DNA from: Chloroflexota bacterium
Lineage (GTDB): Bacteria; Chloroflexota; Anaerolineae; Promineifilales; Promineifilaceae
Reading direction: 5' to 3'
DNA length: 64,000 nt
NCBI GenBank assembly: GCA_022616275.1
Contig: JAKEFB010000036.1
Location: forward strand, 43,308 to 107,307
The notes below the pieces were generated by a model. It had not been told where the DNA came from. It ran no database searches and saw only the letters and a list, made by a program, of their open reading frames with translations. Made by a program: the position numbers and the translations under genes. This document shows positions 1 to 13,122 of this stretch, piece by piece (the first letter of the stretch is position 1; each line of letters begins with the position of its first letter).

Positions 1-2679
1 GTTCTGGTGCACCGCCTCCAAGAATTGTTGCACCGCCTCGCGCGTCTCCAACAACGGCTGCTCCGGGTCTTTTTCGCCCCGCTCAATGGCCAGAATACGA
101 CCCAGGAAGCGTTCAGTCTCTCCTTTGCTGAGAAAGCCGCTGGAGTAGTTTTCGTGGATGTAGAACGCCAGCGGGCCCAGCAGACTCATCGCCTTCTCCT
201 CGTCAATCGCCGCGCCTTTGGTGCCACGCTCCCGGTGCCAGTCGCGCAGCAGGGTGACGGTGGCCGTCTCGTAAAGTTCCACCCGGCGATGGGGCAGGTG
301 GGACTCGCCGCGGTGGATGAGGGCCAGGATGCGCAGAAGCAGGGGGTTCCTGGCCATTTCGAGAACGCCGGGCAAGGTATCCACTGCTTGTAGGATGCCA
401 CCGATCTCACGGCGGGCGCGCTGTTCCACTTGGACTGGGTCGGGCGATTTCGTAAGGTGCCGTTCCACCGCGGGACACCATTTCTCTAAGAACAGTTTGA
501 TGTCGTCCAGGCTCATCCGGCGGATAGTGTAATGCTCAAACTCGCCGGGCACACCGGCAAAGTGGTAGCCAGCGATGCGGCAGGTGACTACAAAATGGTT
601 GCCTATGTGAGCGTAGCGCACCTCGTTCAGTAGATCCCAGGCCAGTTGTATAGCCCGATCATGTCGCCGCTGCCTGCGCCGTTGTTTGATTTGCTTCTCC
701 CATTCCTGGCGCACATCTTCCGGTACGCTTTTGTCCCACGGGATGACCATACTCTCCGCCTCATCATTCCCACTGTTGGCTTCCGGCTTTGCCTCGACAC
801 GCGTCTGAATGAATGTCAGTGAGCGCGTCAGCCAGCCTGGCAAGCCCGTCTCACGAAAGACGTCGGCGAACCGGCCGATAGCAGCGGCAATGTTGTGCCG
901 GTCAGTGTAGTCTCTAATCTCGTCAAGGCCATCCAGTAGCACCATACAGCGGCCTTCCTCCAATAGCCGTTGGAGGAGCGGCCCCAACTTGTCGGCATGG
1001 GGTACTTGCAGCCCGGCAAAATAGCGCGGTAGATAATCCAACAGCGCCAGGTCTGGTTCCTTCTGGCGCGCCTCGGCGTAGTGGGAGATCCGTAGCAAAA
1101 TGGGCAAGCGTACCGGCCCGAGGTCAGGCAGCCGCCAGGCGTTCTTGTCATCCCACCACGCCTGCGGCTGAAAGATGCGCTCAGGTTCGGCCAGGATGGC
1201 AAGGGCAAAGCGTAGCGTCAGGTAGCGTAGCAGCGTAGTCTTGCCCGAGCCTGGTTCGCCCAGGATGACGACCTGCCGGTGGCGCTGAACGATGTTGGCG
1301 AGTTCCTCGCGTGGGCTGGAGATCTCCAGTGCTTGCTCAAGTGGGTGTGCCTGACTAGCCCAGATTCGATATTGTTTCTCGCGCTCCTTGGGATCTTCTA
1401 CGCGCTCCAGGCGTTTATTGATCTCGTCCAGTTCTTCCTGCATCACCCGACGGTCCACGTCGGGGCGGTCGTGGGCGGCCTGCAAACCCACATAGATTTC
1501 ATCCAACGGCAACACCACTTGCACTTTGGTTTGTTTGATGCCGCCCGGCTCCAGGTGAGTGTTGTTTCGCACCAGAGCGTGGAGATAGCCTTCGAGTACC
1601 ATCCGTTCACGCTCAAAGTGCGGGGGAGGTGGAACTTTCAAAGGCGCTGACGATGAAGTGCCTGGTTCAGGTTTTTTTTTACCCAGCGCTTTAGGCAGGG
1701 TATCCAACGTGAATTTGCCACCCGGATGTGAATCTATATCTTCTATCCATTCGTTCCGCTGTTCACTCCAACGCCGCAAGTAAACTGTGCCATGTGCGGC
1801 GTCGAAATCAAGATGGACGAAGTTATAGGCATTGGTATAACGTGAATCTTCGGCCACACGGCGCTTGTAACTAGCCCCGGCGGGGATGATGACACAATCG
1901 CCTGTTGTGCCCTTTACCACGTGAACCTGAGGATTATGTACATGACCGTGCAGGATGAAGTGGCACGCGCGGCCTAGCCTGGCTTCGGTGCGATTGCGAT
2001 CAAACTCGCTTAGCCAGGCAAACGGGTGATGGACAACAGCAATGCGTAGTTCGGCATCGGCGATCTTCGCCAAGGCATCGTGGATCTGCGGTTCACCGAT
2101 CAAGGTGTAACCGTAGTCATTGACCTCACCGTTAGCATCCTTGTTACGAGCGTTCATCCAGGCGGAGTTGAGGCCCAGTAGTCCGACACGCTTCCCACCT
2201 GCTTCCAGTTGGAGAATGGAAGCGTAATCAGGGGAAGGTTGATTTGTGTATCCGGCGACAAACTCACGATATGCCTCAAACGGATCTAACACCCGTTTAA
2301 GCTTTCTCGCATCAATTAGCCAAGTTTGCACCAGTGTGTCGGAATCAAGCGGCTTTTGCAGGGCTGGCGGCAGCATCTCATAGATCGTTTCCCGGCTTAA
2401 ATCGTGGTTGCCCGGTATACAGAAAAGCCGGTTTGGCGGCAAGCTCAGAGCTTCCAACACCGGTTCAAATAGATATTCTCGAGCAGCTTCATACTCAGCA
2501 GGCTGGCCGCTGAAGGCAATATCACCACTAAAGACGACAAAGTCAACCTGTGTCAGAGCTAGATTGATGGTTGCCCGGTCACGAATATCTTTAATGAGAG
2601 CATCGCGCACCACCTTCCGGTCGAAGTCTGCCCCTTTTTGGTGCCAATCCGAGAGATGAAGCCAGGTTAATCCTGTCAT
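1..2679 (-). CDS. Metallophosphoesterase-NACHT fusion protein (3' end off the window)
   Basis: Reading the minus strand from ATG at 2679 gives 893 codons without a stop up to base 1, so the gene continues beyond the left edge. A GGAGG ribosome site sits just upstream. Residues 1-270 form a calcineurin-like phosphoesterase with its metal motifs in order: D11/H13 (SDWH), SGD 51-53, GNHD 90-93, HHP 217-219 and GHVH 245-248. A Pro/Lys linker (about 330-355) and a charged helix follow, then a NACHT-type NTPase: Walker A GEPGSGKTT at 474-482 and Walker B VLLDGLDEI near 580-588. The visible remainder is helical. In STAND proteins the nucleotide-binding module is a switch, the N-terminal domain the effector and the C-terminal part the sensor; here the sensor would lie off the window. 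NACHT proteins of this layout include known bacterial anti-phage NLR-like proteins, but defence is an inference. The gene looks less GC-rich than its neighbours and sits beside a decayed toxin-antitoxin locus, which fits an acquired accessory region. Confidence 0.9.
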   Translation of the reverse strand, partial: MTGLTWLHLSDWHQKGADFDRKVVRDALIKDIRDRATINLALTQVDFVVFSGDIAFSGQPAEYEAAREYLFEPVLEALSLPPNRLFCIPGNHDLSRETIYEMLPPALQKPLDSDTLVQTWLIDARKLKRVLDPFEAYREFVAGYTNQPSPDYASILQLEAGGKRVGLLGLNSAWMNARNKDANGEVNDYGYTLIGEPQIHDALAKIADAELRIAVVHHPFAWLSEFDRNRTEARLGRACHFILHGHVHNPQVHVVKGTTGDCVIIPAGASYKRRVAEDSRYTNAYNFVHLDFDAAHGTVYLRRWSEQRNEWIEDIDSHPGGKFTLDTLPKALGKKKPEPGTSSSAPLKVPPPPHFERERMVLEGYLHALVRNNTHLEPGGIKQTKVQVVLPLDEIYVGLQAAHDRPDVDRRVMQEELDEINKRLERVEDPKEREKQYRIWASQAHPLEQALEISSPREELANIVQRHRQVVILGEPGSGKTTLLRYLTLRFALAILAEPERIFQPQAWWDDKNAWRLPDLGPVRLPILLRISHYAEARQKEPDLALLDYLPRYFAGLQVPHADKLGPLLQRLLEEGRCMVLLDGLDEIRDYTDRHNIAAAIGRFADVFRETGLPGWLTRSLTFIQTRVEAKPEANSGNDEAESMVIPWDKSVPEDVRQEWEKQIKQRRRQRRHDRAIQLAWDLLNEVRYAHIGNHFVVTCRIAGYHFAGVPGEFEHYTIRRMSLDDIKLFLEKWCPAVERHLTKSPDPVQVEQRARREIGGILQAVDTLPGVLEMARNPLLLRILALIHRGESHLPHRRVELYETATVTLLRDWHRERGTKGAAIDEEKAMSLLGPLAFYIHENYSSGFLSKGETERFLGRILAIERGEKDPEQPLLETREAVQQFLEAVHQN

Positions 2680-2817: not shown

Positions 2818-3045
2818 TCACCCCCAGGTCTGTTCTGCTTCCCAAATGTCGAATTCTCCTGGTTGCACCGGGTATCGTGCATACCCGGCTGCGTGCTGCC
2901 GTTCCATTTGTTTGATCTCTTATTGTTCAAGGGCAAGTTTTAAGGCTTCCCGGATAAACGCCGAACGGGTCGTGTTCAAATCCTGGCTTACCTGGTCCAC
3001 TTTGGCCAGTAACGATTCGTCTATCGTCACCTGAATCGTCTTCAT
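2818..3045 (-). pseudogene. Ribbon-helix-helix antitoxin interrupted by an in-frame TAA
   Basis: ATG at 3045 follows a GGAGGTGA ribosome site and opens a 41-codon RHH protein (MKTIQVTIDESLLAKV..., then TTRSAFIREALKLALEQ). It ends at TAA, 2922-2920. The same frame continues for 33 codons past the stop (EIKQMERQHAAGYARYPV..., then EFDIWEAEQTWG) to TGA at 2818. That continuation has the shape of the C-terminal toxin-wrapping tail of MazE/CopG-type antitoxins, so a single nonsense change (for example TAT to TAA) probably split a 75-residue antitoxin. The 41-residue RHH part could still bind DNA and autoregulate. No intact toxin follows. The RHH assignment is firm; the reading as one broken gene rests on frame continuity and family shape. 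Confidence 0.75.
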
Positions 3046-3419: not shown

Positions 3420-6400
3420 ATGACCGGCCGATCCCCAGAGCAAATCAGCGGCTCCGTCGAGCGCATCACCTTCTATAACGAAGAGAACGGCTACACCGTC
3501 CTGCGGCTGAAGCCCGACTCGCGTTCCATGCTGCCCTACAAGTACCCCGGCCGCGGCCAGGACCTTGTCACCGTCGTCGGCAACCTGCCCGAAGTCACGC
3601 CCGGCGAGTGGCTGAAGCTGACCGGCCGCTGGGACACCCACAGCAAGCACGGCCGCCAGTTCCAGGCCGACACCTGCGAACAAAGCCTGCCGGCCACCGC
3701 CGAAGGCATCAAGCGCTACCTCGGCTCCGGCCTCATTCGCGGCATCGGCCCGGTCATGGCCGAGCGGATCGTCAACAAGTTTGGCGACCAGGCGCTGGAC
3801 GTCATTGAGCTGGAGCCCGGCCGGCTGCGCCAGGTGCTGGGCATCGGCCCCAAGCGGATCAAAGGCATCGTCAAGGCCTGGGACGAGCAAAGGGCCATCC
3901 GGGACGTCATGGTCTTCCTCCAGTCCCATGCCGTCTCCACCAGCCTGGCCATCAAGATTTACAAGAAGTACGGCGACGAGTCGCTGGCCGTCGTCCGCCA
4001 GACGCCCTACAAGTTGGTCAACGACATTCGTGGCATCGGCTTCAAAACGGCCGACAAGATTGCCAAAGCCCTGGGGCTGGCCCACGACGACCCCGGCCGC
4101 ATTGAAGCCGGCATCGCCTACACCCTCAACCGCATGGCCGAAGAGGGCCACGTCTACGTCCCCCAGCAAGAGCTGGAGCCGGAAGCGGCCCAGATTTTGA
4201 ACCTGGACCCGGCCAAAATCACGGCCGTCATCGAGCAACTGGAAAGCGACGAGCTGATCCGGCGCGAGACGTTGACCTACAAAGTCGAGCCAGCCCCGGC
4301 CGCTCCACCGGCCCCGGCCGCCGTCAAAGAAGAAAAAGCCGTCTACCTGACCCCCCTCTACTACTCCGAAGTTGGCGTCACCAACCGCCTCCGCCGCATC
4401 ATTGAGCACCCCACCAGCCGCCTCGCCCCCCTCCGCTCAACCCTCACCAGTAGCCAGCTACTTTCCAAAATCCAAAATCTAAAATCTAAAATCGAATTCC
4501 CCCTAACTCCCCAACAACTCCAGGCCATTCACACCGCCGTCAGCCACAAAGTCACCATCCTCACCGGTGGCCCCGGCACTGGAAAATGTATCCACGGAGA
4601 TGCACTCGTATGGCTGGAGCAAGGTTGGGTTCCGATCAAGGAGATAAAACCAACAAAGGACATGGTTGCCGATACCGCCATCCCTATCTCCGTAAAGGTT
4701 CATACTCGCAACGGTCTCAAGGAAGCAACGCACTTTTACTATGGCGGCGAACAGGAAACGGTACGAATTAGAACTTCTGAAAGATATGAAATTGAAGGCA
4801 CGCTCAACCACAGAATCATTGTAGCCACAGAAAACGGCCCTGCCTGGAAACGGCTCGACGAAATTCGTGATGGCGACTATGTTGCTATTTACCGAAAATA
4901 TATTCCTGAGGAGGACGTTTTTGATACCTTTGCCTACTTCCTTGGTTTATTTGTTGGCGATGGACATGCTAATAAGAGCGGTGATCTGCCAGTGACAGGT
5001 GTAATAATCACAACGGCCGATCAAGAAATTTGGGACTTTTTAGAAAAGGAAATGCCACAATTAAACTTTACCGTCAAAAATCATGGATATAGCGGCAAAG
5101 CGCGCATGTATTACATTGGACGGTACCGGTGGCACGGTAGAGGTGGCGTCGCGGCGGTGATGCAGGAGTGGGGCTGCAAATTGGCAAAGTCTAGAGAAAA
5201 GAATGTGCCTGTTAAAATCCTTCAAGGCACATTGTCACAAAAACGCTCTTTCCTTAAGGGGTTGCTTGATGCAGACGGAACAATAGATAAACGTGACGGT
5301 TCAGTGGAATTAGGTATGTCTAATTTACCACTACTCCAAAGTGTACAAGTAATACTGCTAGAATTTGGCATCATATCTGTTATCAGGCAAAAGCCAGATG
5401 TAGATTCCTGGCGCTTATCTATCAGGGGAGACGATGCACTCAGATTCTACGAGCGCATTGGATTCAATATTGAACGGAAGCAAATTGGCAGGCAGTTGCT
5501 TAGCAATCGATCAAATGCGAATCGCGACATTGTGCCCTGCCTGGGAACTGGTCTGCTTCGCCGGTATATTGCTCAGACAGGTAAGCACAACCGTGAATGG
5601 TGGTGGAAATGGAAACGAGAAGCGAAAGGGGAACGACGACCACATAGAGACCGCCTCTTAACTCTGATAGATCAATATCAAGTTAACAGTCAGGAAGAAT
5701 CCATTATTCGGAGTCTTTCCAATGAGGATATCTTTTGGTCTCAAGTGACTGGATCTATACGTTCAAGAGCAGAAGTTTATGATTTACATGTACCGGATGG
5801 CAATGAATTCATTGCTAACGGGTTTGTTAATCATAATACCACTACTTTACGCACACTTCTTGATCTATTGGATCGCCACCACCACACCTACGCCCTGGCC
5901 TCGCCCACCGGCCGGGCCGCCAAACGATTATCAGAAGCCACCGGCCGGCCGGCCAGGACCATTCATCGCCTGCTGGAGTTCAATCCCGGCCAGGGTTTCG
6001 GCCGCCACGAAAACAACCCCATCGAGGCCGACCTGGTGGTCATTGACGAGACCTCCATGCTCGACCTGGTCCTGGCCAACAACCTGCTCAAAGCCGTCAG
6101 CCCCGACAGCCACCTGCTGCTGGTCGGCGACGTAGATCAGTTGCCCTCGGTTGGGGCCGGAGACGTGCTCCGCGACCTGATTGACTCCGGCGTGGCCGCC
6201 GTCATCCGCCTGGAGACGATCTTCCGCCAGGCGGCCGGCAGCCTGATCATCCGCAACGCCCACCGCATCAACCAGGGCCAGATGCCGGAGACGCCCAAGG
6301 GGGCCACCGACTTCTTCCTCTTCGTCAAGGACGACCCCGACGAAGCGGCCGAATTGCTGGTGGACATCGTCAAGAGCCGCGTCCCGGCTAAATTTGGCCT

Positions 6401-6938
6401 CCACCCCTTCGACGACGTCCAGGTGCTCAGCCCGATGTACGCCGGCGGCACCGGCGTTTCCAACCTCAACCAGTTGCTGCAGCAGGCCCTTAACCCGCCA
6501 GGCAACAAACCGGAAAGACGGCTCGGCGGCCGGGTCTTTCGCCTGGGCGACAAAGTCATGCAGACGGTCAACAACTACGACAAGAACGTCTACAACGGCG
6601 ACATCGGCCGGATCACGGCGATGGACGTGGTCCAGCAGACGATGACGGTCAGCATTGACGGCGCGCCCGTCGTTTACGACTTCCTGGAAGCCGACGAGCT
6701 GGTCCACGCCTTTAGCATCAGCGTCCACAAGAGTCAGGGCGCCGAGTACCCCTGTGTGGTCATGCCCATCCTGACCCAGCATTACATGATGTTACAGCGG
6801 AATTTGCTCTACACGGCCGTCACCCGGGCCAAAAAGCTGGTCATCCTCGTCGGCACGCGCAAAGCCATCCAGATTGCCATCCGCAACAACCGCGTCACCG
6901 AGCGCCACACGGCCCTGGACTGGCGCTTGAAGCGGTAA
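3420..6938 (+). CDS. recD2: RecD2-type DNA helicase with an inserted intein
   Basis: 1172 residues; removing the 417-residue intein leaves 755, normal for RecD2-family SF1B helicases. These unwind DNA 5' to 3' and act in repair without RecBC. The N-terminal domain (1-100, starting SGSVERITFYNEENGYTV) and helix-hairpin-helix repeats (RGIGP, LGIGPKRI, IRGIGFKTADK, about 120-220) precede the motor. Walker A is GGPGTGK then TTT, split by the intein after Lys389. Walker B is VVIDETSM near 872, and the last helicase motif is FSISVHKSQGAEYP near 1100. The linker before the motor (about 349-358, SKIQNLKSKI) is encoded by a genomic 7-bp repeat and is not expected in the family. The N-terminal sequence supports the start at 3420; there is no ribosome site and a -10 box lies directly upstream. 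The helicase can work only if the intein is spliced out. Confidence 0.95.
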   Translation: MTGRSPEQISGSVERITFYNEENGYTVLRLKPDSRSMLPYKYPGRGQDLVTVVGNLPEVTPGEWLKLTGRWDTHSKHGRQFQADTCEQSLPATAEGIKRYLGSGLIRGIGPVMAERIVNKFGDQALDVIELEPGRLRQVLGIGPKRIKGIVKAWDEQRAIRDVMVFLQSHAVSTSLAIKIYKKYGDESLAVVRQTPYKLVNDIRGIGFKTADKIAKALGLAHDDPGRIEAGIAYTLNRMAEEGHVYVPQQELEPEAAQILNLDPAKITAVIEQLESDELIRRETLTYKVEPAPAAPPAPAAVKEEKAVYLTPLYYSEVGVTNRLRRIIEHPTSRLAPLRSTLTSSQLLSKIQNLKSKIEFPLTPQQLQAIHTAVSHKVTILTGGPGTGKCIHGDALVWLEQGWVPIKEIKPTKDMVADTAIPISVKVHTRNGLKEATHFYYGGEQETVRIRTSERYEIEGTLNHRIIVATENGPAWKRLDEIRDGDYVAIYRKYIPEEDVFDTFAYFLGLFVGDGHANKSGDLPVTGVIITTADQEIWDFLEKEMPQLNFTVKNHGYSGKARMYYIGRYRWHGRGGVAAVMQEWGCKLAKSREKNVPVKILQGTLSQKRSFLKGLLDADGTIDKRDGSVELGMSNLPLLQSVQVILLEFGIISVIRQKPDVDSWRLSIRGDDALRFYERIGFNIERKQIGRQLLSNRSNANRDIVPCLGTGLLRRYIAQTGKHNREWWWKWKREAKGERRPHRDRLLTLIDQYQVNSQEESIIRSLSNEDIFWSQVTGSIRSRAEVYDLHVPDGNEFIANGFVNHNTTTLRTLLDLLDRHHHTYALASPTGRAAKRLSEATGRPARTIHRLLEFNPGQGFGRHENNPIEADLVVIDETSMLDLVLANNLLKAVSPDSHLLLVGDVDQLPSVGAGDVLRDLIDSGVAAVIRLETIFRQAAGSLIIRNAHRINQGQMPETPKGATDFFLFVKDDPDEAAELLVDIVKSRVPAKFGLHPFDDVQVLSPMYAGGTGVSNLNQLLQQALNPPGNKPERRLGGRVFRLGDKVMQTVNNYDKNVYNGDIGRITAMDVVQQTMTVSIDGAPVVYDFLEADELVHAFSISVHKSQGAEYPCVVMPILTQHYMMLQRNLLYTAVTRAKKLVILVGTRKAIQIAIRNNRVTERHTALDWRLKR
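4464..4494 (+). repeat. Heptamer array inside the recD2 reading frame
   Basis: Four 7-base units (TCCAAAA, TCCAAAA, TCTAAAA, TCTAAAA) then TCG. The same words form intergenic arrays at 10340-10370 and, on the other strand, 56772-56799. Here they are translated, in the linker just before the helicase motor. Confidence 0.85.
4587..5837 (+). mobile_element. Intein with LAGLIDADG homing endonuclease in RecD2
   Basis: A 417-residue in-frame insertion (host residues 390-806). It starts with Cys390 (CIHGDALVWLEQGWVPI, block A), carries a block-B-like TLNHR with its His near 464, and ends with block F/G (VYDLHVPDGNEFIANG, then FVNHN). The next host residue is Thr, a permitted +1 nucleophile, so all residues of standard class 1 splicing are present. 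Two dodecapeptide motifs, FLGLFVGDG near 506-514 and FLKGLLDADG near 611-620, mark a LAGLIDADG endonuclease able to spread the element. Its DNA is visibly more AT-rich than the helicase on both sides, consistent with horizontal arrival. It interrupts the Walker A P-loop, a typical intein target. Confidence 0.95.
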
Positions 6939-9275: not shown

Positions 9276-10108
9276 ACAACGCCCCGACTGCCCCGGCTCG
9301 CTCCCTTTGGCGCCCGCCCCGTCCCTTGCCCCCGCGACGTCCCTTAGGCCCGCCGCTGGGCGCTTATTACCTGGGGCTGCTCATCCTGTTGTACCTCCCC
9401 CTGGCTGTCCTGTTCCTCTTTTCCATTAACGCCAACACCTCCCTTTCCTTTCCCTTACAGGGGTTGTCCCTCAACTGGTATCGCCAGCTCTTTGAATTGG
9501 AGGCCCTCCTCCGGTCGGCGCGCAACAGCCTGGTCGTCGCCGCTGGCAGTAGCCTGGTGGCCACCTTCCTGGGCGCCACCGTCGCCATCCTCGTCGTCCG
9601 CTACCACTTCCGGGCCAGGAATTTCTTGCTGGCCCTGGCCGTCCTGCCGCTGATCGTGCCCTTCATCGTCCTGGCCGTGGCCTTATTGCTCCTCTTCGCC
9701 GCCTTCAGCGTGGACCGTTCCTTGTGGACCGTGGGCATCGCCCACACCGTCGTCGCTCTGCCCTATACCTTGCTCATCATCATGGCCCGGCTGGCCGGCT
9801 TTGACGCCGCCATTGAAGAGGCGGCCATGGACCTGGGAGCCAACTACCCGACGACCTTGCGCCGTATCGTGTTGCCTCTCATCGCCCCGGCCATGGTCTC
9901 CGCCTGGCTGACCGCCTTTACCGTTTCCTTCGACGAATTCGCCCTGGCCCTCTTCCTGGCCGGCACTGAGCCAACCTTCCCCGTCTACCTCTTCAGCCAG
10001 CTCCGCTTCGCCAACCGCCTGCCGGTGCTCATCGCCCTGGCCGTCCTGCTGATGATCGGTACCCTCACCCTCGTCTTTATTGCCGAACGTATCCGCCGAA
10101 CAGAATGA
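9272..10108 (+). CDS. potC: ABC transporter permease, PotC-like
   Basis: 278 residues with a Pro/Arg-rich N-terminus (LPPRRPLGPPLG) and six predicted membrane segments beginning YYLGLLILLYLPLAVLFLF. The EAA loop near 180-200 (EEAAMDLGANYPTTLRRIVLP) is the site for the transporter ATPase. It overlaps the previous permease by four bases and is translationally coupled to it. It is the last gene of the importer; the expected PotA ATPase is absent downstream and must be supplied from elsewhere. Confidence 0.9.
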   Translation: MNNAPTAPARSLWRPPRPLPPRRPLGPPLGAYYLGLLILLYLPLAVLFLFSINANTSLSFPLQGLSLNWYRQLFELEALLRSARNSLVVAAGSSLVATFLGATVAILVVRYHFRARNFLLALAVLPLIVPFIVLAVALLLLFAAFSVDRSLWTVGIAHTVVALPYTLLIIMARLAGFDAAIEEAAMDLGANYPTTLRRIVLPLIAPAMVSAWLTAFTVSFDEFALALFLAGTEPTFPVYLFSQLRFANRLPVLIALAVLLMIGTLTLVFIAERIRRTE

Positions 10109-10132
10109 GACATGGATTTTGCTGCTAGGGTT

Positions 10133-10439
10133 TTATCGCGAATAACGCGAATTTAGCGAATGACTCGGATGTAGCCCAGGCATTCCCTGACGACAATGCA
10201 GTCAACGACGCCTTGCGACTCGTATTGCAAATGGCGCGTATTCCTCACAAAGTTAGTTAACGCGTTAGCGCCGGCCCGCCGGCCGGGCTGCGGGCCATCG
10301 CCTGCGCCCTGGCCATGTGGAAGCGGGCGATACGTCTGCTCCAAAATCTAAAATCCAAAATCCAAAATCCTTCGGACTGATGTCCGTCAGGACGAAGTCT
10401 AAAATCCCTTCATTCGCCCATTCGCGCTATTCGCGATAA
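10133..10439. repeat. 307-bp segment bounded by inverted repeats
   Basis: Arms of about 30 bases at 10133-10163 and 10410-10439 are inverted copies (TTATCGCGAATA..., then ...GCGAATGA) with a few mismatches, each built from the word CGCGAAT. Between them lie a frame without a start (10169-10254, containing NDALRLVLQMARI), an AAAATCC heptamer array (10340-10370) and a small CTTCG/CGAAG inverted repeat (10370-10397). It may be a non-autonomous element or nested repeats. It fills the space before the sigma-factor gene; no complete gene is seen. Confidence 0.5.
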
Positions 10440-10558
10440 TCTTCCCAAAATTGGGTGTTATAAATTGGAGCCTTCCTCCGACATACTTCTTAGGAAGGAC
10501 AAACGGTTCAAGCCATTTGGCGGTTGCCTGCCGCGGCGGGCGCCCCAGGAGACTGTGC

Positions 10559-11155
10559 ATGTTGGCAACGTTGTTGCAAATCGCCATGGAACCGGCCTCA
10601 AAGCCGGTCAATATTGATAGCGACGGCGCGTTAGCCCGGCAGGCGGCCAAAAATCCGCAGGCCTTCTCCGAGCTATACGAGCGTCATGTCAACCGTATTT
10701 ATCGTTATGTGCTGGCCCGTGTCGGCGATGTCCAGGATGCCCAGGACGTGACTTCACAGACCCTCTTAACTGCCCTGGAGCAGTTGCCGCGCTATCGCGG
10801 CCAGGGCGTTTTTGTGGCCTGGCTCATGGGCATCGCCCGGCACAAAGTCATAGATTACTACCGGCAGCGCCGGCCGGCATTAGACCTAGAAGAAATAGAG
10901 GATCTGCCCGGCAGCAACGAAGATACCGGCGACATTGTAGACCAGCAACTGGCTCTGGAAGCCATCGCCCGCAAGCTGAAAGTCATTGCCCCCGACCGGG
11001 CTGAGGCGCTATCGCTCCGCCTTTTTGGTGGATTAGAAGTAGCCGAAATCGCCGAGGTCATGGGTAAGAACGAAGCGGCCGTACGCATGCTGGTCTTTCG
11101 CGGCCTGCGCGATTTGCAGGCCCAGTTGGATCCCGGGCAGGAGGAATTGCGATGA
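10559..11155 (+). CDS. ECF-type RNA polymerase sigma factor
   Basis: 198 residues from ATG at 10559, which follows AGGAG with a 7-base gap; an upstream in-frame start at 10451 lies in repeat-like DNA and lacks a site. Region 2 is visible (AFSELYERHVNRIYRYVLARV, then DAQDVTSQTLLTALEQL), as is region 4 (ALSLRLFGGLEVAEIAEVMG, then AAVRMLVFRGLRDL), the pattern of group 4 sigma factors. It would direct polymerase to stress or envelope promoters. The next gene overlaps its stop (ATGA) and encodes a membrane-anchored protein, the usual place for its anti-sigma factor. Confidence 0.9.
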   Translation: MLATLLQIAMEPASKPVNIDSDGALARQAAKNPQAFSELYERHVNRIYRYVLARVGDVQDAQDVTSQTLLTALEQLPRYRGQGVFVAWLMGIARHKVIDYYRQRRPALDLEEIEDLPGSNEDTGDIVDQQLALEAIARKLKVIAPDRAEALSLRLFGGLEVAEIAEVMGKNEAAVRMLVFRGLRDLQAQLDPGQEELR

Positions 11156-13122
11156 GCGACAAAGAACAGAACCTGGCCGATAGCTTGGATGCGTTCTTGA
11201 CAGCCAAGATGCGGGGCGCGAGCGAACCGGCCCCGGCCGACCTGCCCGAAGCTGAGGCCCGGCTGGCAGCCATGTTACTGGAAGTAGCCCAGGCTACCGA
11301 ACCGGATCCTGAGTTCCGGGCAGCGTTGGACGCCCAACTCTATCGGGCCGCCCGGCAGGCGACCGCCTCACGACCTGAACCGATGTCCTTCCGCGAAAAA
11401 ATGACATCTTTACAAGGTTGGAGGTTTTTAGACATGAAACGCTTTGTTGGCATATTTGCCGCAGCGGCGGCTATCGTCGCTGTGGCCCTATTCGGATACT
11501 TTATCTGGTCGAACCTTCCTGGGAACCAGGAAGGCCCGATCATTGCCGGCCCGGTGGAAACGCCAACGGGTGAGACACCGCCCGGGACTATCGAAACGCC
11601 TGTAACCGGCGAGCCGCCGGCTCTGGCCGCGCTCCCTCCGCTGCAAGGCCCCCAGGCCGCCGGCGGCTTTGGTGGCGCTGGCGGTGGAGGTGGTGATGGC
11701 GCGCCTCCCGTTACCGAAGCCGGAACAGATATTACTATCTTTGAGCCGGTTGACGTCTTCTCCGGGACTGAATTCACCCTGGGAACAACGCTGCCCACCG
11801 AGCCGGCCAGCGCCCTCGTCCAACAGGAACCCGTGCCGCCCATCGTGGACGCAGCCACGGCCCGCGAGATCGCCAACCGCTTTGGCTTCACCGGCCCGCT
11901 ATACACCAATCCGCCCTATGAGCCCCCGCCGGGCGAGCCTGCGCCTGAGATCATCCCCACGTATATGGCTTTCAATGGCCGGGAGGTGGTCCAGATGGAC
12001 TCGTTCCTGATTTACTACAGCAACCCGGCCATCACCCCGGACCAGGCTGCCTCGCTGCCTTTTGAGCAGGCTGCTCCGATTGCCGAGAACTTTCTGCGCG
12101 AGCGTGGCCTGCTGACCTTTGCCTACGAGATGCGGCCGGGCTTTAGCCCCGGCGAGGTGCTCTTTTACCGCTTGATTGACGGCCGCCCGGTCAACGAAAG
12201 TGAAATCTACGTCGGCGTCACCGCTGGCGGCGTCTACTTCCTGAGCTACAACGCCCGTCCCGTCACCGAAGACCTGGGTATCTACCCGCTCCGCTCGGCC
12301 GAAGCCGCCTGGCAGCAACTCCTGGCTGGTGTGGTTGCCCAGCAAATTCCCTGGACGGTGATGCCCAATCAGGCCAATCAGCCAGTCGAGGAACCGCTGC
12401 CAATTAAGAGCTGGGCCCGCAGCTTCACCCCCGGCGCAGAGGCCCACTTCTACACCTGGCCCGGTGTCCTGATCGCCGTTGAGCCCGGCGGCGTACCGCG
12501 CATCGAGACCTACCCCCTGGCTATCCAGGCTGACGACGATACGCTGCGAGCTATTGGCCAGAACCCCGGCCATCCCTACCACTTCTGGGGTACGGTTGGG
12601 CCGGATGGCCAGACCTTGCAGGTAGCCGGCTACGAGGTATTAGACGAAGCCACGTTCCAGCCCCTTTTCTTGGAAGGCACTATCCAGCGCAGTGGCGACC
12701 AGGTGCTGTTAAATACGGCTACTGGCGAGACGTACCTGCTCCCCGACGCGCCGGCCGACTTGCCTGACGGGCTGGCGGTGGACGTCTTTGGCCCGACCAC
12801 CCGCGACGCCGGCCAGGAATACCCGCTGCTGGAGTGGGACAGCATCAACGAAAAGTATATTGGCCCCGAGCCGACCGAAGGACCGGTGATAATCGAACCG
12901 GCCCCCTACGAGCCTTACATTTACCAACAGGTAACGGCTAACAGCGTTGAGCTGGCTTACTACCTGACTTACGTCCAGGACGAAGAAGCCCTGGCCGCCG
13001 GCCGCTACGCCCCACCGCTCATCCTCTTCCAGCCGGTGTGGAAGTTCACCGCCACCGCCGAAAACGGCGACGAGCTGATCTTCTACGTCCAGGCCGTCGA
13101 AGCCGGGTTTGTCCAGAACTAA
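11152..13122 (+). CDS. Membrane-anchored putative anti-sigma factor / sensor
   Basis: 656 residues, coupled to the sigma gene by a four-base overlap. The N-terminal 95 residues are cytoplasmic and helical, the usual form of a sigma-binding segment, but no zinc motif is seen. One membrane segment lies at about 98-122 (VGIFAAAAAIVAVALFGYFI). A Pro/Thr- and Gly-rich linker (about 125-190) leads to a large extracytoplasmic domain (about 220-656) rich in beta strands and aromatic residues that I do not recognise. Its role as regulator of the adjacent sigma factor is inferred from overlap and topology. Confidence 0.8.
   Translation: MSDKEQNLADSLDAFLTAKMRGASEPAPADLPEAEARLAAMLLEVAQATEPDPEFRAALDAQLYRAARQATASRPEPMSFREKMTSLQGWRFLDMKRFVGIFAAAAAIVAVALFGYFIWSNLPGNQEGPIIAGPVETPTGETPPGTIETPVTGEPPALAALPPLQGPQAAGGFGGAGGGGGDGAPPVTEAGTDITIFEPVDVFSGTEFTLGTTLPTEPASALVQQEPVPPIVDAATAREIANRFGFTGPLYTNPPYEPPPGEPAPEIIPTYMAFNGREVVQMDSFLIYYSNPAITPDQAASLPFEQAAPIAENFLRERGLLTFAYEMRPGFSPGEVLFYRLIDGRPVNESEIYVGVTAGGVYFLSYNARPVTEDLGIYPLRSAEAAWQQLLAGVVAQQIPWTVMPNQANQPVEEPLPIKSWARSFTPGAEAHFYTWPGVLIAVEPGGVPRIETYPLAIQADDDTLRAIGQNPGHPYHFWGTVGPDGQTLQVAGYEVLDEATFQPLFLEGTIQRSGDQVLLNTATGETYLLPDAPADLPDGLAVDVFGPTTRDAGQEYPLLEWDSINEKYIGPEPTEGPVIIEPAPYEPYIYQQVTANSVELAYYLTYVQDEEALAAGRYAPPLILFQPVWKFTATAENGDELIFYVQAVEAGFVQN

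What the first reader, a model, noticed from the sequence alone, without database searches (positions are those of the whole stretch)
1..2679. Phosphoesterase-NACHT fusion: candidate NLR-like defence protein at the left edge
The sequence shows a complete metallophosphoesterase motif set (DxH, GD, GNHD, HH, GHVH) in one frame with Walker A and Walker B of a NACHT NTPase. NACHT/STAND proteins with N-terminal effectors are known anti-phage systems in bacteria. Here the effector would be a metal-dependent phosphoesterase (nuclease, nucleotide hydrolase or phosphatase). The C-terminal sensor is off the window. The locus lies beside a decayed toxin-antitoxin pair, which fits a defence or accessory island.
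Basis: partly seen in the sequence, partly recalled or inferred. Interest (0 to 1): 0.75.

Follow-up and report, generated by a model that had tools for sequence, protein, structure and literature searches.

The report
Giant bacterial immune receptor with swappable effector
This gene encodes a giant protein built like an immune receptor, joining a phosphoesterase enzyme to an NLR-type switch and a long repeat arm, and related proteins carry other enzymes in front of the same kind of switch.

Summary
The window holds the first 893 residues of a 2,534-aa protein; the rest was recovered from the same contig: metallophosphoesterase (MPE), NACHT, a region of about 1,250 residues with some recognisable HEAT repeats, and a conserved ~190-aa C-terminal cap. 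In the predicted structure the MPE resembles SMPDL3A, Rv0805 and GpdQ, the NACHT part NLRC4, NLRP3 and NOD2.

MPE-NACHT as an anti-phage system is known: DS-8 (Science 2026) needs both domains. This protein matches the DS-8 model only in the MPE and is no DS-8 member.

New here: its NACHT falls in a supported clade of cap-bearing proteins of its phylum (Chloroflexota) whose N-termini are trypsin-like, caspase, TIR or helical. Its MPE is closest to archaeal (Methanothrix) MPEs fused to NB-ARC and TPRs. One clade for the 13 sampled MPE-bearing NACHTs is rejected. So the effector was exchanged, apparently across domains of life. The gene lies in a ~10 kb accessory stretch missing from both relatives inspected.

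Best reading: a STAND/NLR-like defence receptor that switches on an N-terminal phosphodiesterase, probably acting on a nucleotide. Substrate, trigger and phage phenotype are untested. New variant of a known kind.

The parts
1690..2679 (-). N-terminal metallophosphoesterase (calcineurin-like) effector, residues 1-330; ATG at 2679-2677
2641..2652 (-). MPE motif I, SDWH with D11 and H13
   Evidence: census
2521..2529 (-). MPE motif II, SGD with D53
2401..2412 (-). MPE motif III, GNHD 90-93
   Evidence: N91 and H92 in 73 of 73 rows
2026..2037 (-). MPE motif IV, VVHH with H217
   Evidence: H217 in 73 of 73 rows
1936..1947 (-). MPE motif V, GHVH 245-248
1360..1689 (-). linker, residues 331-440, with an LPLDEIYVGL stretch that resembles LPLERVYVALKA of other NACHT proteins (by eye); similarity to the Methanothrix proteins falls off at about residues 320-360
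1..1359 (-). NACHT module, residue 441 to 893 and on past the window edge
1234..1260 (-). Walker A, GEPGSGKTT 474-482
919..942 (-). Walker B, VLLDGLDE 580-587
562..588 (-). sensor-like VTCRIAGYH 698-706 (label recalled, from no call)
1..2679 (-). window part (893 of 2,534 aa) of the whole gene; the other 1,641 aa (rest of NACHT, HEAT region about 1,080-2,330, cap about 2,335-2,521) lie left of the window at G000:C189:38382-43307
   Evidence: HEAT_2 E 4.4e-9; cap alignment A3
2920..3045 (-). RHH/CopG antitoxin relic in the accessory stretch that holds the gene
   Evidence: RHH_1 E 8.8e-9; 41 aa from ATG to an in-frame stop

Best explanation
A single-protein STAND/NLR-like defence receptor. Resting state: NACHT holds ADP, and the HEAT arm with its C-terminal cap keeps the protein closed (inferred). 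A foreign, most likely phage-made, molecule or a cell disturbance is sensed by the fast-diverging HEAT arm (inferred). NACHT exchanges nucleotide and oligomerises, bringing N-terminal MPE domains together and switching them on (inferred from NLR and bNACHT/Avs precedent). The two-metal MPE then hydrolyses a phosphodiester, most likely in a nucleotide or nucleotide-derived signal rather than in DNA, which stops phage growth, probably at the cost of the infected cell (substrate and outcome inferred). Shown here: full architecture, intact metal-site residues and P-loop, a place in a NACHT-HEAT-cap lineage with exchanged N-termini, and an accessory, patchy location.
For: Architecture in one 2,534-aa frame. 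Metal ligands conserved. NACHT is kin of NLRC4/NLRP3/NOD2 by sequence profile and predicted fold. MPE: Rv0805 and GpdQ lead among MPEs by sequence; a YydB model, purple acid phosphatase, SMPDL3A, Rv0805 and GpdQ lead by fold, Mre11 lower. Exchanged N-termini on one chassis: MPE (query), Trypsin_2 E 3e-11 (L173), Peptidase_C14 E 1e-10 (L174), TIR_2 E 5e-16 (L241), helical by eye (L175, L037), all in the same NACHT clade and each with a cap match in the same or the next frame. The 13 sampled MPE-bearing NACHTs as one clade rejected, p-AU 2.6e-5; 9 of them, after dropping long and gappy rows, 2.2e-9. Experimental precedent for MPE+NACHT: DS-8. Patchy: C-terminal half matched in 2 of 53 family genomes; locus absent from 2 of 2 relatives inspected.
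Confidence: 0.72

Rival explanations
1. Same receptor, but the MPE is a DNA or RNA nuclease (Mre11/SbcD-like) that degrades phage and host nucleic acid once clustered.
Confidence: 0.25
2. A STAND-type regulator or developmental/stress switch, not an anti-phage system.
For: STAND proteins in bacteria have been studied mainly as transcriptional regulators, and effector-swapped STAND systems are described from multicellular prokaryotes (PMC7159879, passages). The scanned neighbours are housekeeping genes.
Against: Patchy presence, accessory insertion, exchange of trypsin/caspase/TIR/MPE N-termini and a fast-diverging arm point to conflict biology; DS-8 shows phage defence for the same domain pair.
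Confidence: 0.13
3. The MPE degrades an immune second messenger or a phage-made nucleotide, so the receptor is a brake or guard on a nucleotide-signalling system rather than a killer.
For: SMPDL3A, to which DS-8 is compared, degrades cGAMP (PMC13092281, passages); Rv0805 is a cyclic-nucleotide phosphodiesterase (recalled).
Against: No nucleotide cyclase among the neighbours scanned; DS-8 is described as a single-protein system.
Confidence: 0.12
4. Assembly artefact: MPE and NACHT-HEAT belong to different genes or organisms joined in a metagenome bin.
For: Bin with 5.5% estimated contamination; the MPE part differs in GC3 (0.53 against 0.70 in linker plus NACHT) and in ancestry.
Against: One uninterrupted frame of 2,534 codons; MPE-NACHT fusions recur in several phyla; the contig is the family's own (carbamoyltransferase up to 88% identical in same-family genomes); a second GC3 dip inside the HEAT region (0.49) shows that the dip is not special.
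Confidence: 0.03

Closest known systems
DS-8 (DefensePredictor; NCBIfam NF053861)
   Same: Single protein, metallophosphatase plus NACHT; both needed for phage defence in E. coli. The query's MPE matches the DS-8 model over residues 8-309.
   Different: Query is 2,534 aa against a 994-position model, scores 117.8 against a cut-off of 790, and matches only in the MPE. HEAT plus cap C-terminus. DS-8 is over its cut-off in 1 of 301 phylum genomes (G135), and that protein's MPE is very distant (branch 4.06, placement unsure by the tool's own warning).
STAND NTPase-FGS conflict proteins with calcineurin N-termini (Kaur et al. 2021, PMC8195603)
   Same: Calcineurin among the N-terminal effectors in front of STAND NTPases, NACHT included (passages); MPE-NACHT-FGE proteins were found here (L082, L098).
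   Different: Query has HEAT repeats and a cap, and no FGE-sulfatase in its Pfam list.
Bacterial NACHT (bNACHT) anti-phage proteins, e.g. bNACHT25
   Same: Tripartite effector-NACHT-sensor layout (PMC12169576, passages).
   Different: bNACHT25/32 carry PD-(D/E)XK DNases and NCH1 domains; the clade paper is not held, so no clade was assigned.
Animal NLRs (NLRC4, NLRP3, NOD2)
   Same: NACHT module by sequence profile and predicted fold.
   Different: Enzyme effector instead of CARD/PYD, HEAT arm instead of LRR (animal side recalled).
Methanothrix MPE-NB-ARC-TPR proteins (L074-L076)
   Same: Closest MPEs, 53-57% identical, grouped 100/100 with the query.
   Different: For L074, the one scanned, the NTPase is NB-ARC (E 2e-8) and the repeats are TPR.
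Rv0805 / GpdQ / SMPDL3A phosphodiesterases
   Same: MPE fold and sequence kinship.
   Different: Not fused to an NTPase; substrate of the query unknown.

Membership tests
STAND/NACHT NLR-like receptor | N-terminal effector domain and central NACHT with Walker A and B | tested here: met
   (Pfam NACHT itself under cut-off)
STAND/NACHT NLR-like receptor | C-terminal repeat region in the sensor position | tested here: met
   HEAT_2 E 4.4e-9, five stretches; sensing itself not tested
STAND/NACHT NLR-like receptor | Trigger-dependent oligomerisation and effector activation | not testable with these tools
   needs biochemistry
DS-8 anti-phage system | Score over the NF053861 cut-off (790 bits) along the 994-position model | tested here: not met
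   117.8 bits, model positions 1-286 only
DS-8 anti-phage system | Metallophosphatase plus NACHT in one protein | tested here: met
DS-8 anti-phage system | Phage protection lost with metal-site or NACHT mutants | not testable with these tools
   published for DS-8 only
AVAST (Avs) | Match to an Avs model of PADLOC | tested here: inconclusive
   five PADLOC families at E<=0.01 (PDC-S60, Effector, mad8, PDC-S73, PDC-S10), none named Avs; how Avs is modelled there was not checked
STAND-FGS calcineurin proteins (Kaur 2021) | C-terminal FGE-sulfatase/lectin-fold domain | tested here: not met
   no such family among the 23 listed up to E 1
bNACHT clades | Placement in the catalogued clades | not tested
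   clade paper not held
NACHT-HEAT-cap lineage of the phylum (defined here) | NACHT in one supported clade, and the ~190-aa cap | tested here: met
   99/98 and 99/99 support; cap alignment A3
Binuclear metallophosphoesterases | Five metal motifs in order | tested here: met
   metal content and activity not tested

The most novel reading that the evidence does not exclude
Chloroflexota hold a receptor chassis (NACHT, fast-evolving HEAT arm, conserved C-terminal cap) on which at least five kinds of N-terminus are exchanged, among them a phosphodiesterase cassette traded with methanogenic archaea; the cap is an undescribed domain that reads or gates a trigger common to the members, so one sensor logic is wired to protease, TIR and phosphodiesterase outputs.
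Probability: 0.35. Interest if true: 0.68.

Novelty: new variant of a known kind. Interest (0 to 1): 0.52.

Why it matters
What the phosphoesterase of MPE-NACHT defence proteins cleaves is open: the DS-8 authors state that the target is unknown. This lineage offers a natural experiment: related switches with the same cap carry MPE, caspase, trypsin-like or TIR N-termini, so trigger and output can be separated by comparing and exchanging the natural members. It also shows an effector cassette shared by NACHT and NB-ARC receptors and, apparently, by archaea and bacteria, which bears on how NLR-type immunity is assembled in evolution.

Tried and rejected
Rejected: housekeeping 3' half (it holds HEAT repeats and a cap); DS-8 membership; contig contamination as the source of the fusion; the GC3 dip as proof of recent transfer (a second, lower dip lies at codons 1089-1420); flanking direct repeats (longest exact shared stretch 10 bases); phage carriage of this version (no match in the phage collection; 57 plasmid records match, in none does one place cover 80% of the query). 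Matches to the DS-8 model in 120 of 301 phylum genomes and in 7 of 14 control genomes are mostly weak (E about 1e-3 to 1e-8) and were not counted as relatives.

Of 91 loci gave no frame by my ORF rule; of the 86 proteins two (L097, L152) gave no match, that is, a wrong frame; 73 span all eight metal-site positions; 38 entered the MPE tree, with 5 other rows, chosen as the closest plus those with a NACHT match. The tool warned of long branches in that tree (L044, L045, L102 and others). For the NACHT tree 4 of 34 rows were dropped (two duplicates, one contig-cut, one second NACHT frame without MPE), and L077 did not enter for short coverage; six more were dropped for the check.

Full report
Check of the observation. 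The window's first 2,679 bases hold, on the minus strand, an open frame of 893 aa that runs off the left edge. The window is G000:C189:43308-107307 of an 8.5 Mb, 309-contig genome (98.25% complete, 5.5% contamination). The same contig gave the rest: one frame of 2,534 aa with stop, L002:10382-17986 minus. Pfam sees Metallophos at 7-250 (E 5.4e-10, over cut-off), HEAT_2 in five stretches (E 4.4e-9), and NACHT and nSTAND3 at the P-loop, both under their cut-offs. Of 73 relatives whose alignment spans all eight metal-site residues, 64 keep all eight.

Known counterpart. The NCBIfam model DS8_antiphage matches residues 8-309 at E 3.4e-34, but with 117.8 bits against a cut-off of 790; DS9_1 matches at 8.3e-15. 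PADLOC gives PDC-S60 (1e-38, residues 7-270) and an 'Effector, Endonuclease' model (3.4e-24). DS-8 is a single metallophosphatase-NACHT protein found by DefensePredictor; mutating either of two catalytic residues or a NACHT residue abolished defence, and its target is unknown (PMC13092281, passages read). Calcineurin-like effectors in STAND-containing conflict systems were described earlier (PMC7159879 and PMC8195603, passages), and one DGR target combines a phosphodiesterase and a NACHT domain (PMC10907252, passages). So MPE plus NACHT is not new. My seven paper searches (listings seen) showed no title or abstract start that describes the chassis below; the library lacks most subscription papers.

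The 3' half. A search with residues 1,079-2,534 matched 7 of 301 phylum genomes and 2 of 53 family genomes, the own genome counted in both; the other matches cover only the last ~190 residues. Direct blastp added weak matches inside the HEAT region (L174 1.8e-4, L239 2.4e-5). Nine copies of the cap align with 15 invariant columns. A profile of these nine finds matches at E 1e-20 or better in 10 of 347 class genomes and 10 of 350 phylum genomes; 4 and 6 of these supplied rows of the profile, so 6 and 4 are new; all matches up to E 1e-3 are in 49 and 26 genomes, the weak ones looking like generic HEAT. One strong match, G582 (L238), sits in a protein without blastp similarity to the query, so the cap is not strictly bound to this chassis.

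Exchanged N-termini. Where the N-terminus of a cap-bearing NACHT protein could be read it differs: Trypsin_2 (L173, 1,818 aa, E 3.2e-11), Peptidase_C14 (L174, 1,936 aa, E 1.2e-10; L239 has the same kind of start by eye, its chassis split over two frames), TIR_2 followed by a sub-threshold DUF4062 (L241, 2,315 aa, E 4.7e-16), an N-terminus without Pfam family that looks helical by eye (L175, 1,845 aa; L037, with the cap in a separate frame), and MPE in the query. L240 (G670) starts like L175, but its long frame has no match to the query's NACHT and its cap lies in another frame. L034, the best NACHT neighbour, is cut at its 5' end. Other strong cap matches lie at contig ends or in broken frames and were not classified (G463, G466, G415, G541, G569, G260, G382, G326, G076).

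Trees. In the NACHT tree of 30 rows the query and seven cap-bearing rows form a clade (99/98); the 12 other MPE-bearing rows fall elsewhere, and a tree that holds the 13 together is rejected (p-AU 2.6e-5). Without long and gappy rows: 7-row clade at 99/99, one clade for the remaining 9 MPE-bearing rows rejected at 2.2e-9. In the MPE tree of 43 rows the query groups with three Methanothrix/Methanosaeta proteins (100/100; with two of them against the third at 97/90), at 53-57% identity. One of these, L074, continues as NB-ARC (E 2e-8) plus TPR, and identity with it falls from 60% in residues 281-320 to 30% in 321-360 and 22% after that. The two halves of the query thus have different histories. 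The direction of transfer rests on few sequences and an incomplete scan. The MPE part has lower GC3 (0.53) than linker plus NACHT (0.70), but a second low stretch at codons 1089-1420 (0.49) weakens that as evidence.

Other MPE-NACHT proteins. Relatives that match the query in both MPE and NACHT occur in Verrucomicrobia, Proteobacteria, Acidobacteriota, Chlorobiaceae, Nostoc and Myxococcota, and on one contig of the viral collection (L154). Two that were scanned end in FGE-sulfatase domains (L082, L098); L077 and L154 show similar C-terminal motifs by eye.

Setting. Left of the gene lie an EamA transporter, an ECF sigma factor, a PALP enzyme, a JAB protein, a DUF4395 protein, a thioredoxin-like and a ThiF protein; right of it, after the RHH relic, a RecD2 helicase. 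In G019, same family, the carbamoyltransferase, ThiF, JAB, PALP and sigma genes and recD stand in the same order; two small frames between sigma and recD correspond by position only, and 50 bases separate the last of them from recD, with no EamA, MPE-NACHT or antitoxin there. In G001 the block is rearranged, and none of its frames of 110 aa or more matches EamA or MPE-NACHT (2 of 2 inspected). If the small frames correspond, the accessory stretch in G000 is about 10 kb. The contig belongs to the family: its carbamoyltransferase is up to 88% identical in same-family genomes. The phylum is read from G078, same class as the window, whose contig length equals that of a record titled Anaerolineae bacterium (L080).

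How it works, most likely. Shown: domains, intact active-site residues, exchanged N-termini, accessory position. Inferred: sensing by the HEAT arm, NACHT nucleotide exchange and oligomerisation, MPE activation, growth arrest or death of the infected cell. For the substrate I favour a nucleotide phosphodiester (about 0.55) over DNA/RNA (about 0.25), because Rv0805, GpdQ and SMPDL3A outrank Mre11 by about 2 in Z and Rv0805 leads by sequence; fold does not fix substrate. Rv0805's activity on cyclic nucleotides is recalled, not taken from a call.

Verdict. It is a new variant of a known kind: the domain pair has a proven precedent, while the giant HEAT-cap chassis with exchanged N-termini and an archaeal-like MPE was not found described in my searches.

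Noticed in passing
window 3420-6938 (+): RecD2 helicase interrupted at its P-loop by an intein (Intein_splicing E 4.5e-14) with a LAGLIDADG domain (E 4.5e-21); no same-family recD frame listed exceeds 834 aa against 1,180 here, so relatives seem to lack it.
   Followed up: partly
window 2920-3045 (-): RHH/CopG antitoxin fragment ending at an in-frame stop; no toxin recognised beside it.
   Followed up: partly
L002:8789-9037 (-) and L002:8673-8807 (-): Small frames left of the EamA gene that by eye resemble an antitoxin and a PIN-type toxin remnant; Pfam gives no family.
   Followed up: partly
L035:3387-5954 and 9563-11974 (-) (G078:C241): Two MPE proteins with P-loops (855 and 803 aa) about 3.6 kb apart; the second has N instead of the last motif-V histidine.
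   Followed up: no
L104:5344-10014 (+): Polyangium protein with the order reversed: NACHT first, MPE at the C-terminus.
   Followed up: no
L154:9001-12558 (+): MPE-NACHT protein with an FGE-like C-terminus by eye, on an 83 kb contig of the viral collection.
   Followed up: no
L132:8977-15408 (+): Bathyarchaeota giant of 2,143 aa with MPE and sub-threshold STAND/AAA matches, C-terminus unassigned.
   Followed up: no
L002:13727-14722 (-) (codons about 1089-1420 of the gene): Stretch of markedly low GC3 (0.49) in the HEAT region, unexplained.
   Followed up: no
L238:1274-5218 (-) (G582): Strong cap match in a protein otherwise without similarity to the query.
   Followed up: no
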